Origin: Deltaproteobacteria bacterium
GTDB taxonomy: Bacteria > Desulfobacterota > Binatia > UBA9968
Assembly: GCA_016193465.1 (NCBI GenBank)
Contig: JACPSE010000228.1
Coordinates: 1-44,037 of the forward strand
DNA length: 44,037 nt
Direction of reading: 5' to 3'
The notes under the pieces were generated by a model, which made no database searches, was not told the origin of the DNA, and worked only from the letters and a program-made list of their open reading frames with translations. Within the stretch, counting starts at the first letter, position 1. The number at the start of each line of letters is the position of its first letter. Positions 3,187 through 5,669 of this stretch are shown here, one piece after another. The position numbers and the translations under genes are program-made.

Positions 3187-3223
3187 TGGTGGCCAGGGAC
3201 GGAATCGAACCGCCGACACGAGG
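3187..3223. repeat. Direct repeat of tRNA-Phe 3' half (distal att-like site)
   Basis: These 37 bases are identical to 5633-5669, the CCA end through the anticodon-stem side of the tRNA-Phe gene, in the same orientation. There is no 5' half here, so it is not a tRNA gene. A 3' tRNA fragment at the far end of an insert is the classic footprint of integration at a tRNA attachment site by a tyrosine recombinase. Confidence 0.9.
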
Positions 3224-3347
3224 CCCAAAGCGCAAGTTTCGCTTGGAATTTTGCGCCTGCTTTAGTATGATTTGCGCGCGTCAAGTTGGGCAGACCGATT
3301 TTGTGAAAGCGTGACCTAAACAAGAACGGCTTTTATTGGAGGGCATG

Positions 3348-3680
3348 ATGACAGGGGCAGTTAAGACGCTACTGACTTTATTGGTGTGCTACGCGATAGC
3401 TGCCTGCGGACAAATCACGTCTCCCAATGCCCGAGGACAGCTTCCGACAGCTACTGGTCAACGCAACGATAGCAACCTTGTTTTTGCTTGTGGATCAAAA
3501 GGAATGGGCGTTGACTTCGTGTCCGGTAATTGTGTTTCTCGGTCGGGCAATCAGGTGAATCCCTTTGACTTGTATCCGCCATTTCAGGCTCCGTTGCAGA
3601 AACCGTCTAGTGGAGACCTTATCATGCGGTGTTCTCTTCAAGGGCGTACTCCTGATTTTGCAACGGGCCGTTGCATGTGA
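3348..3680 (+). CDS. Small putative lipoprotein with Cys pairs
   Basis: The protein is about 110 residues. It opens with a signal peptide, MTGAVKTLLTLLVCYAIAAC, whose end is a lipobox (A-I-A-A-C), so it is probably lipidated and exported. The mature part is short, polar and Pro/Gly-rich and contains two similar units with paired cysteines: VFACGSKGMGVDFVSGNCV and MRCSLQGRTPDFATGRCM. The x-D-F-x-x-G-x-C ending of both suggests a duplicated disulphide-closed loop. The second of two adjacent ATGs was chosen because GGAGGG ends four bases before it; a TTG 12 bases earlier is less likely. Function is unknown; it lies inside the tRNA-Phe island and converges with the next gene. Confidence 0.6.
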   Translation: MTGAVKTLLTLLVCYAIAACGQITSPNARGQLPTATGQRNDSNLVFACGSKGMGVDFVSGNCVSRSGNQVNPFDLYPPFQAPLQKPSSGDLIMRCSLQGRTPDFATGRCM

Positions 3681-3684
3681 AGCG

Positions 3685-4626
3685 CTAACGCGCAAGCGCT
3701 TTCCTTATCCTTGGCGGGAGCCTGTTCCAAATCGTCTTTGAGCGAGTGCCGCTCTTCTTTATTTTCTCAACTACAGGTACAAAACTTTCCCACTTCTCAC
3801 CCAGATGATGCCTAAGCTTCGATAGATCCGGTATCTGGTCCAGGAGATCTGATATTCTTCGCCCACGGCTTTTCCGTATCAGTGTTACCAGTTTGTCTAG
3901 CTTGGGCAAGCCCTGTCTCTCTAGCGATTCTGATTCCGCTTCGCCCCTCCGCCGCCTAAGTTTTTGCATGCGCCGTTTCGACCCTTCCCTCTCGTGCAGC
4001 CGCTTACATTCTGGGCTGCAAAGCTTTTCCCTGGGATCTTCGGCGACAAAAAACTTTTGACATTCCTCACATCGTTTGAGTTTTGACAGCTCTTGGCCCT
4101 CAAGAGCTTCGATAATGATCCTATAAAGACGCTCCCGCATTGAAGTGGCTGGCAATTGTTTCTTAAGGAGCCACCTGAAGCCTCCAACGCTCACAATTCT
4201 TTCAACTGATCGGATTGGCTTATGTTTAAGTGCATCGCTATTAGCTCCCCAGCGAACCGCGCCATAGCGCCTTAGCCATCGCCTGTCAAACGGCTCAATG
4301 TCCCAAACACTTACCAATCCGAGACTGTTAATTTCTTCAAGTAGCCGCTCTAAGTGGGAGTCAAGGGCGCCAATTTGCCACGGCTCCGGCGCTACAATCG
4401 CTAAGAGATCCTGCCGCAGTTCCGCTTGAAACCGTTTCACTTCCTCGACCTCTAGCCGTTGATTGGGCCTATAGAGTAGCTGGAAAAGAGGATGCCTTGG
4501 GCGCTCCCATCCCTGACGCGCCGCCGTTACCTTCGGTTCGGCACAATCGAAATTAAGGAACAAAGCAAGCTGCCTCAGGCTGGCGGTACTGCTGAGTTCG
4601 GGGAGGTTTTTACGTGTTACAGGCAT
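3685..4626 (-). CDS. Zinc-ribbon protein, CGNR-like
   Basis: The 313-residue protein contains a single four-Cys ribbon at ~188-212, C-x2-C-x13-C-x3-C (CEECQKFFVAEDPREKLC, then SPEC), in the F-F-x-A-x-D-P-R-x-K-L-C-S-x-x-C form shared with CGNR-type zinc fingers, but without the terminal C-G-N-R itself. It is followed by a strongly basic helix (EGSKRRMQKLRRRRGEAE) suited to nucleic-acid contact. The N-terminal 180 residues are helical and unrecognised; the C-terminal part is again basic. The CGNR family is usually described as putative DNA-binding regulators. AAGG lies five bases before ATG. It is the largest gene in the tRNA-Phe island and has no recombinase motif. Confidence 0.6.
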   Translation of the reverse strand: MPVTRKNLPELSSTASLRQLALFLNFDCAEPKVTAARQGWERPRHPLFQLLYRPNQRLEVEEVKRFQAELRQDLLAIVAPEPWQIGALDSHLERLLEEINSLGLVSVWDIEPFDRRWLRRYGAVRWGANSDALKHKPIRSVERIVSVGGFRWLLKKQLPATSMRERLYRIIIEALEGQELSKLKRCEECQKFFVAEDPREKLCSPECKRLHEREGSKRRMQKLRRRRGEAESESLERQGLPKLDKLVTLIRKSRGRRISDLLDQIPDLSKLRHHLGEKWESFVPVVEKIKKSGTRSKTIWNRLPPRIRKALAR

Positions 4627-4695
4627 ATGAGCCTTTTGGATAGATAGTCGTTACGGGCAACGTTTGATTTCATCGTAACAGAGAAATATAAATAA

Positions 4696-4845
4696 AGGCA
4701 AGTCGGGTCTCAGGTAGAAGCAGCTAAAGCGATGGGTATACGCGAAAACCGCCTGAGCTACATCGGGAGGTTTGGGGTTCAGGCTTCTACGACTCAACAA
4801 TCTTGTCGGGCCGTATCTCAGGCATCAATAGCTTGGTCAGTCTGA
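4696..4845 (+). pseudogene. Possible remnant of a Fis-type helix-turn-helix tail
   Basis: An open stretch after TAA reads GSQVEAAKAMGIRENRLSYI followed by GRFGV. This is close to the Fis-like HTH that ends NtrC-family activators (G-N-x-x-x-A-A-x-x-L-G-I-x-x-x-x-L-x-x-x-x-K-x-x-G). There is no upstream receiver or AAA domain and no start codon or ribosome site. Only about 25 residues match, so this is a tentative call of a gene fragment inside the island. Confidence 0.35.
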
Positions 4846-4864
4846 ATCCGACGAGGAGAACGAG

Positions 4865-4990
4865 ATGAACACTGAATTCTTTTATCAGGGTCCCTTGAGA
4901 AAAATGGGGTTTCGATATTCCGGCCCGCCGCGGATTTTTCTGGCGGCCGTTGTTCTTCTGGTCTTGGCGCTCTTGCACGTGGTGTCGTGA
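4865..4990 (+). CDS. 41-residue single-span membrane peptide
   Basis: ATG at 4865 opens 41 codons ending in TGA at 4988-4990. A good ribosome site, GAGGAG, lies six bases upstream. The N-terminal half is polar and basic (MNTEFFYQGPLRKMGFRYSG) and the C-terminal half is one hydrophobic helix, FLAAVVLLVLALLHVVS, which predicts a single span with the N-terminus inside. No homologue is recognised. A minus-strand reading frame across the same bases has no such signals. Small size keeps the confidence moderate. Confidence 0.5.
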   Translation: MNTEFFYQGPLRKMGFRYSGPPRIFLAAVVLLVLALLHVVS

Positions 4991-5051
4991 TCAATCTTTT
5001 GGGAGTTGATGGTAGATAATGCGAGATAGAAAAAGGGGGCTCAAAAACACT

Positions 5052-5078
5052 GAGGCCGGCTCTTTTGGAGCCGGCCTC
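5052..5078 (-). terminator. Rho-independent terminator for the small membrane-protein run
   Basis: An 11-bp perfect inverted repeat (GAGGCCGGCTC / GAGCCGGCCTC) has a five-base loop. Read on the minus strand it is followed after four bases by a T5 run (AGTGTTTTTG). It lies 54 bases past the stop of the last small membrane-protein gene and ends that transcription unit. Confidence 0.75.
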
Positions 5079-5131
5079 GCACCCTAGCCCGCAGGCGTAG
5101 GGGGGATAATACTACGAGGGCCGTCAATGAA

Positions 5132-5227
5132 CTACTGCTTCAAAGACCAGCCCACCACCCAAACTACATAAAGAAAAGAACCGAATATGACAAGGGCACC
5201 AATAACAGCGATAATCTGGTAAATCAT
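5132..5227 (-). CDS. 31-residue single-span membrane peptide
   Basis: ATG at 5227 opens 31 codons to TAG (5134-5132). Almost the whole peptide is one hydrophobic helix, IIAVIGALVIFGSFLYVVWV, followed by a short polar end (GWSLKQ). A G-rich ribosome site (GGGGGG) lies five bases before ATG. It is the third member of a run of tiny membrane proteins and ends just before a strong terminator. Size and layout recall accessory subunits of respiratory complexes (CydX or CcoQ-like), but no such complex is encoded nearby, so that is only an analogy. Confidence 0.55.
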   Translation of the reverse strand: MIYQIIAVIGALVIFGSFLYVVWVVGWSLKQ

Positions 5228-5266
5228 TGCTGCCCCCCGGAGGCTTGACCAGAAGGTAGCCGGTTC

Positions 5267-5398
5267 CTAGTGAGATTTCCTCAGATCGTTCCAAAGGGCC
5301 TTGAAGGGATTGTAGGTTCCCTTGTGATAGGCGTAACCCACTAGCAGAATAATGAGAACAACGAGGTTGATCCAGCCGAAAGCATCCATAAAAGTCAT
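5267..5398 (-). CDS. 43-residue single-span membrane peptide
   Basis: ATG at 5398 overlaps the TGA of the preceding gene (ATGA), and AGAAGGAGA sits directly upstream, so translation is probably coupled. One hydrophobic helix (WINLVVLIILLVGYAYH) follows a short N-terminus (MTFMDAFG). A basic, aromatic C-terminal tail (KGTYNPFKALWNDLRKSH) would lie along the cytoplasmic face. No known family is recognised. Confidence 0.6.
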   Translation of the reverse strand: MTFMDAFGWINLVVLIILLVGYAYHKGTYNPFKALWNDLRKSH

Positions 5399-5577
5399 TC
5401 TCCTTCTAAGGAGTATGCCATAAGGAAAGCAATGGTTCCAGAAAACGCGCCTACAAGAATCGGGACCAAACTGGGGCCGCCTTCCTTAAGAAACCCGTAT
5501 AGCACAAGCCCAGTATAGGATAATTTGGAGACGTCGTAAAGGTACTTGGCAACGCTTTCCTTCTGTTTCTGGGTCAC
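5395..5577 (-). CDS. 60-residue two-span membrane protein (DUF6722-like)
   Basis: GTG at 5577 opens 60 codons. The polar start MTQKQKESVAKYLYDVSKLS is followed by two hydrophobic helices (YTGLVLYGFL and LVPILVGAFSGTIAFLMAYS) joined by a short Gly/Pro loop. The K-Y-L-x-D-x-S-K-L-x-x-x-G-V/L-x-L pattern recalls DUF6722, a family of small proteins of unknown role; this is from memory. Its stop overlaps the next ATG by four bases. It starts 55 bases downstream of the tRNA-Phe 3' end, on the same strand. A TATGAT -10-like box at about 5594-5589 has no convincing -35. Confidence 0.55.
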   Translation of the reverse strand: MTQKQKESVAKYLYDVSKLSYTGLVLYGFLKEGGPSLVPILVGAFSGTIAFLMAYSLEGE

Positions 5578-5632
5578 AGATACCCTATATCATAACTGCC
5601 AGGCCAGAAGTTAGGGAAAAAGAGGGTTTGGG

Positions 5633-5669
5633 TGGTGGCCAGGGACGGAATCGAACCGCCGACACGAGG
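5633..5669. repeat. Direct repeat copy within tRNA-Phe (proximal att-like site)
   Basis: This is the proximal copy of the 37-bp repeat. It covers CCA, the acceptor 3' strand, the T-arm, the variable loop and the 3' side of the anticodon arm, the usual segment used as an attachment site by tyrosine recombinases. Confidence 0.9.

What the first reader, a model, noticed from the sequence alone, without database searches (positions are those of the whole stretch)
3187..5669. tRNA-Phe-bounded 2.4-kb island with no recombinase
A 37-bp exact copy of the tRNA-Phe 3' half sits 2.4 kb from the intact gene in direct orientation. Everything between is small, unrecognised or membrane-bound: lipoprotein, zinc ribbon, four micro-proteins. 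Established knowledge: integration into tRNA 3' ends by tyrosine recombinases leaves this footprint. Inference: the unit is a non-autonomous cargo element mobilised in trans, or a defence/immunity cargo too small to be catalogued.
Basis: partly seen in the sequence, partly recalled or inferred. Interest (0 to 1): 0.72.

Follow-up and report, generated by a model that had tools for sequence, protein, structure and literature searches.

The report
Integrase-less remnant island at tRNA-Phe
A 2.4-kb stretch beside a phenylalanine tRNA gene is the shrunken remnant of a mobile element that once inserted into that tRNA gene and later lost its insertion enzyme; full-sized relatives sit at the same gene in related bacteria, so it is a well-documented case of a known kind of element, not a new one.

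Summary
The last 37 nt of tRNA-Phe (5633-5669) recur exactly at 3187-3223, same strand, with 2409 bp between them and no recombinase inside. The geometry is that of tyrosine-integrase insertion. In relatives the same tRNA-Phe gene (next to gshB) is an integration hot spot: empty in one genome, carrying integrase-bearing elements in at least three, with small fragment-bounded scars in two more. The G011 element there is 9.6 kb, bounded by nearly the same tRNA piece. It carries integrase, excisionase-like HTH, XRE regulator, Toprim/AAA primase, and homologues of two window features: the 313-aa zinc protein and a 67-bp double hairpin. The window's genome also has an integrase-bearing element at tRNA-Cys with an attachment core in the identical register (nt 40-76, 37/37), whose integrase is 71% identical to G011's. 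Inside the window island an HTH gene is truncated and fused to another gene's end where relatives carry replication genes. Best reading: an internally deleted, CIME-like remnant of a satellite-like integrative element, keeping both att sites, four membrane micro-proteins and the zinc protein. Present-day mobilisation in trans is possible but poorly supported: integrase arm sites are not convincingly present. No defence match was found.

The parts
5633..5708 (-). tRNA-Phe(GAA), intact; its 3' 37 nt are the tRNA-proximal attachment site
3187..3223 (-). displaced exact copy of tRNA-Phe nt 40-76 (distal attachment site)
   Evidence: nearly the same core (nt 40-74) bounds the integrase-bearing element of G011, and nt 40-76 of tRNA-Cys bounds an element of this genome
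3224..5632 (.). 2409-bp integrase-less island
5395..5577 (-). 60-aa DUF6722-like small membrane protein
   Evidence: Pfam PF20482 E 1e-9; 92% identical copy in this genome's tRNA-Ser element, dN/dS about 0.03-0.08 by NG86
5267..5398 (-). 43-aa single-helix micro-protein, conserved in G006, G009, G015 and the own tRNA-Ser element
5132..5227 (-). 31-aa single-helix micro-protein, 84% identical stretch in G006
5043..5109 (.). conserved non-coding double hairpin; in relatives it follows the XRE gene and, in G011 and G015, precedes the integrase
4865..4990 (+). 41-aa single-helix micro-protein, homologues in G006 and G009
4696..4842 (+). fused remnant: 5' half of a small HTH gene (to about 4760) joined to a segment that in G006 precedes the 41-aa gene; inferred deletion junction
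3685..4626 (-). 313-aa zinc-ribbon protein; homologues in integrase/primase elements of relatives; closest solved fold DUF1470 (ABATE/CGNR zinc-finger type), weak
3345..3680 (+). 111-aa lipoprotein-like ORF next to the distal repeat, no homologue in 57 relatives
1576..3055 (-). low-GC neighbour outside the repeat: Gp49/HigB-like toxin (2723-3055), HTH antitoxin (2431-2733), DUF6901 (1576-2364); inferred older accretion
529..654 (-). C-terminal remnant (residues 206-263) of the SDR gene that is intact in G003; breakpoint of the ancestral flank

Best explanation
The island is an internally deleted remnant of a satellite-like integrative element that entered the 3' end of tRNA-Phe. Shown by sequence: intact tRNA plus displaced 3' fragment; integrase-bearing counterpart at the same tRNA in a relative, sharing the zinc-protein family and the double hairpin; a fused, frame-disrupted junction where the relatives have HTH, primase, excisionase and XRE genes. 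Inferred: a tyrosine integrase of the type still present at tRNA-Cys in this genome inserted the parent element, recombining within the shared tRNA 3' segment (nt 40-76) so that the element's own copy rebuilt the tRNA and the displaced piece marks the far end. Deletions then removed integrase, regulators and replication genes, leaving two att sites around retained genes. It can now leave or move only if an integrase from another element recognises the two repeats, or if a new element inserts at the rebuilt site and carries it along.
For: Exact 37-nt repeat in the right geometry; displaced fragments are rare and never inverted in this genome. G011: tRNA-Phe, integrase 430 aa, hairpin, XRE HTH, HTH_17, zinc ribbon, Toprim/AAA_25 primase, zinc-protein homologue (24-31% identity), tRNA fragment nt 40-74, then the ancestral LigB-SDR-NIPSNAP flank. 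Integrases also at tRNA-Phe in G010 and G020; empty site in G009 with the dehydrogenase gene 87 bp after tRNA-Phe, versus 89 bp after the displaced fragment in G012. Own tRNA-Cys element: integrase 71% identical to G011's, same att register, similar core-proximal flank TTGCGGTTTAGG vs TTGCGCTTTGGG. HTH remnant 4705-4760 matches G011's gene between zinc protein and primase and runs into a segment matching G006 upstream of the 41-aa gene. Hairpin kept while its XRE and integrase neighbours are gone. Own tRNA-Ser element couples an integrase to a DUF6722 + 43-aa pair 80% identical in DNA.
Against: No genome was found with the same island still complete, so the ancestor is reconstructed from relatives that share only parts. 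The DUF6722 module sits where an integrase would be expected, so recombination between elements, not deletion alone, must have happened. The sequence left of the distal repeat is not the ancestral flank, so the far boundary cannot be checked against an empty site in this species. The window comes from a fragmented assembly (238 contigs).
Confidence: 0.82

Rival explanations
1. A standing non-autonomous cassette: the two 37-bp sites are still substrates for an integrase encoded elsewhere (for instance at tRNA-Cys), which excises and reinserts the unit in trans.
For: Repeat copies are identical (37/37) while comparable scars in G012, G023 and G011 are 91-94%, suggesting recent insertion or little decay; the own tRNA-Cys integrase uses the same att register and a similar core flank; integrase-less tRNA-Phe tracts recur in G006, G012 and G023; the 60-aa protein is under purifying selection.
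Against: The arm motif found near both ends of both integrase-bearing elements is absent at the tRNA end (about 38% of random segments score as well) and only weak at the distal end (about 2%); no second copy of the unit in the genome; an internal deletion junction with a truncated gene.
Confidence: 0.15
2. The island is kept because its genes serve the host or protect against phages or competing elements.
For: Strong constraint on the 60-aa protein and recurrence of micro-protein genes at several loci in four relatives and this genome; intact 313-aa ORF.
Against: No PADLOC, PHROG or Pfam match of known defence function inside the island; the zinc protein resembles DUF1470-type regulators only weakly. 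Constraint on a module shared between mobile elements can serve the elements, not the host.
Confidence: 0.2
3. A chance duplication of a tRNA piece unrelated to integration.
For: A displaced fragment alone would be compatible with any duplication.
Against: The fragment ends at the encoded CCA, is in the geometry expected of integration, is matched by integrase-bearing elements with the same core at the same gene in relatives and at tRNA-Cys in this genome, and no inverted fragments exist.
Confidence: 0.02

Closest known systems
CIME (cis-mobilisable element), as defined for ICE/IME remnants (PMC5704250, PMC7563491; original description cited there as Pavlovic et al. 2004)
   Same: att-bounded, integrase and transfer genes lost by deletion, small (classical CIMEs 1.2-13 kb), at a hot-spot gene, prone to accretion
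   Different: the inferred parent carries integrase and primase but no relaxase or T4SS was recognised among the proteins scanned, so it is a remnant of a satellite-like element, not demonstrably of an ICE or IME
tRNA-targeted genomic islands catalogued by Islander (PMC4383910)
   Same: intact tRNA, displaced 3' fragment in direct orientation, island between
   Different: Islander requires an integrase inside and 2-200 kb; this one fails the integrase filter
P4-like and other primase-bearing phage satellites (PMC8628076)
   Same: G011 and tRNA-Cys relatives carry integrase, excisionase-like HTH, a regulator or toxin-antitoxin pair, and primase; no capsid gene was recognised among the proteins scanned
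   Different: no match to the window zinc protein in phage or plasmid collections, nor to it, the DUF6722 protein or the G011 primase in viral contigs; no helper or packaging genes identified
DUF1470 / ABATE-CGNR zinc-finger proteins
   Same: predicted fold of the 313-aa protein has 3h0n as top match, Foldseek prob 1.00; a four-cysteine ribbon followed by a long basic helix
   Different: E-value only 0.019, TM 0.27 (query) / 0.42 (target), no Pfam hit; not claimed as a member

Membership tests
tRNA-integrated genomic island | intact tRNA and displaced 3' fragment in direct orientation at the two ends | tested here: met
tRNA-integrated genomic island | integrase gene within the island | tested here: not met
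   present in the G011, G010 and G020 counterparts
tRNA-integrated genomic island | occupied and empty sites among relatives | tested here: met
   empty in G009, occupied in G010, G011, G020, G006, scars in G012, G023; family level only, no same-species pair
CIME | both att sites retained, recombination genes lost | tested here: met
CIME | derived by deletion from an ICE or IME (conjugative parent) | tested here: inconclusive
   deletion junction seen; no relaxase or T4SS hit among the parent-like proteins scanned
CIME | can be mobilised in cis after accretion | not testable with these tools
   needs an excision or transfer assay
Phage satellite (P4-like / PICI) | integrase plus primase and regulator, no structural genes | tested here: not met
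   not met by the window island; met in part by the G011 and tRNA-Cys elements
Phage satellite (P4-like / PICI) | dependence on a helper phage for packaging | not testable with these tools
   no helper identified
Anti-phage defence island | recognised defence gene in the island | tested here: not met
   island proteins without a credible match

The most novel reading that the evidence does not exclude
tRNA-Phe in this bacterial family hosts a class of integrase-less, att-bounded mini-cassettes (0.8-3.3 kb) that are moved in trans by integrases of co-resident satellites, and that carry a shared set of membrane micro-proteins plus a conserved double-hairpin element selected for the mobile elements' own benefit.
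Probability: 0.13. Interest if true: 0.6.

Novelty: new member of a known kind. Interest (0 to 1): 0.33.

Why it matters
It documents, in an uncultivated lineage, a tRNA-Phe integration hot spot with empty, full, decayed and scarred states, and a remnant too incomplete for tRNA-island catalogues that demand an integrase. It exposes a group of primase-bearing integrative elements without close matches in the phage, plasmid and viral-contig collections searched, with a conserved hairpin and strongly constrained membrane micro-proteins, giving concrete targets for testing whether integrase-less remnants are still mobile.

Tried and rejected
Looking for a second, decayed tRNA fragment left of 3187 to bound the low-GC HigBA/DUF6901 part: only matches of 10 bp or less, chance level. 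Testing whether the G011/tRNA-Cys arm sites occur at the island ends: not convincing. tRNA-Arg on C225 has an 88% fragment, but the DNA between holds an aminotransferase-type gene with none of the shared cargo. Random tRNA-fragment duplication rejected. Taking the island as the repeat-bounded 2.4 kb only is too narrow: GC and the lost SDR-LigB-dehydrogenase genes show that about 650-3186 is also rearranged.

Full report
OBSERVATION. tRNA-Phe(GAA) occupies 5633-5708 on the minus strand. Its last 37 nt, including the encoded CCA, recur without mismatch at 3187-3223 on the same strand, 2446 bp away. On the tRNA's strand the order is tRNA, island, displaced 3' fragment, as expected after integrase-mediated insertion. 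The 2409 bp between contain, from the tRNA: a 60-aa DUF6722-like protein, a 43-aa and a 31-aa single-helix protein, a double hairpin, a 41-aa single-helix protein on the other strand, an HTH remnant, a 313-aa zinc-ribbon protein and a 111-aa lipoprotein-like ORF. No recombinase, excisionase or primase is detectable there even as fragments.

NOT CHANCE. Among 41 distinct tRNA genes of the genome, with 314 kb of downstream and 69 kb of upstream sequence scanned, displaced 3' fragments occur only downstream of tRNA-Phe, tRNA-Cys and (88%) tRNA-Arg; none is inverted, and the other hits are on tRNA-Ser (two neighbouring genes matching each other, and one upstream same-strand hit not examined). Orientation is the control that Islander uses for false positives (PMC4383910).

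THE SAME SITE IN RELATIVES. The island-bearing gene lies next to gshB, and gshB loci were fetched from family and class relatives. G009 has an empty site on the 3' side: a dehydrogenase gene begins 87 bp after tRNA-Phe. In G012 the same gene begins 89 bp after a displaced tRNA fragment, leaving a 0.84-kb tract in between. G023 has a 1.34-kb tract of the same build. G010 and G020 have tyrosine integrases beside tRNA-Phe, and in G010 a fragment (nt 32-75, 44/44) lies about 10.4 kb away. G011 carries the most informative element: 9.6 kb from tRNA-Phe to a fragment of nt 40-74, holding integrase, the hairpin at 84%, an XRE regulator, an HTH_17 excisionase-like protein, a zinc ribbon, a Toprim/AAA_25 primase (PHROG primase, E 5e-77) and a homologue of the window zinc protein, followed by the ancestral LigB-SDR-NIPSNAP genes. 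G006 has another integrase-less tract at tRNA-Phe with two copies of the 43-aa gene, the 31- and 41-aa genes, the hairpin, an XRE and a MerR-type gene. G015 keeps hairpin, XRE and the 43-aa gene beside a truncated integrase.

THE SAME GENOME. Contig C127 has an element at tRNA-Cys with integrase, HTH_17, a Phd/ParE-type toxin-antitoxin pair and CHC2 primase. Its att core is nt 40-76 of tRNA-Cys, 37/37, the same register as in the window, and its integrase is 71% identical over 425 aa to the G011 tRNA-Phe integrase. The bases just inside the distal core are alike: window TTGCGCTTTGGG, tRNA-Cys TTGCGGTTTAGG, G012 TTGCGCTTTTTG. Contig C41 has an integrase, CopG-like and HTH_17 genes beside tRNA-Ser, followed by a DUF6722 + 43-aa pair whose DNA is 80% identical to window 5266-5621.

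DECAY BY DELETION. Window 4705-4760 matches the 5' half of a small HTH gene that in G011 lies between the zinc protein and the primase. The matched stretch then passes into a segment that in G006 lies directly upstream of the 41-aa gene, with a frame disruption. Zinc protein and HTH stub on one side, 41-aa gene and hairpin on the other, are what a deletion of primase, excisionase and XRE would leave. The hairpin, which in G011 and G015 lies between XRE and integrase, survives without either. The retained small genes are not decaying: for the 60-aa protein dN/dS is about 0.03 against the tRNA-Ser copy and about 0.08 against G009 (NG86, saturated dS, so approximate).

THE LEFT SIDE. GC stays low (0.46-0.52) to about 1540, covering a Gp49/HigB-like toxin, its HTH partner and DUF6901. 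The ancestral SDR gene is cut to residues 206-263 at 529-654, while G003 of the same genus has it whole; the dehydrogenase and LigB genes are gone. I infer an older accreted piece between 1540 and 3186 whose far att site is lost. Remnants accreting at such sites are described for CIMEs (PMC5704250, PMC7563491).

MOBILITY. The two integrase-bearing elements share the motif AACGTTCCGGTTTTGTGCCAAsTTCA near both ends, as expected of arm-type integrase sites (inference). At the window's ends the best match is reached by 2% of random segments on the distal side and 38% on the tRNA side. This argues against efficient recognition by that integrase, though another integrase might act.

ZINC PROTEIN. 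Homologues were found in G011, in G010 elements with integrase, DUF3631 or Toprim/DnaB-type proteins, and at lower significance in G022, G015 and G025. The model (mean pLDDT 67) has DUF1470 protein 3h0n as top match with probability 1.00 but E 0.019, so a regulator of the ABATE/CGNR zinc-finger type is a lead, not a finding.

VERDICT. The footprint is real and the element is a CIME-like, integrase-less remnant of a satellite-like tRNA-integrating element; it is a new member of a known kind. What is not settled is whether it is still moved in trans and what the micro-proteins do.

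Noticed in passing
window 5043-5109; L041:3790-3865; L104:655-724; L054:4708-4777: Non-coding double hairpin 84-92% identical to the window copy in elements of four genera, two compensated base pairs among 20, T-run on the minus strand; possibly a terminator or a structured RNA of this element group.
   Followed up: partly
L079:1431-1478 and 6799-6874 (G009 C244): A 48-nt exact 3' fragment of tRNA-Ala lies inverted relative to the intact tRNA-Ala, with the DUF6722 + 43-aa pair between them; misassembly or inversion, unexplained.
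   Followed up: no
L141:4744-4891 (own C127): tRNA-Cys is followed 27 bp later by a second exact copy of its last 45 nt before the integrase element starts, as if two insertions had occurred.
   Followed up: no
L044:7231-7767 and L049:4258-4785: The 0.84-kb and 1.34-kb tRNA-Phe tracts of G012 and G023 each hold one main ORF (178 and 175 aa) without any Pfam, PHROG or PADLOC match.
   Followed up: partly
window 1-347: Contig C13 of the same genome ends in a 347-bp copy (99%) of the window start, so C13 with nth is probably the left neighbour.
   Followed up: partly
window 6034-6075, 6682-6723: Short coiled-coil-coding repeats (AENADLKARLERLE) also matched on contigs C43, C4 and C206; looks like a dispersed repeat family.
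   Followed up: no
window 29317-34924: Pair of large proteins resembling a type III-like restriction helicase and a DNA methyltransferase, judged only by eye from their sequence.
   Followed up: no
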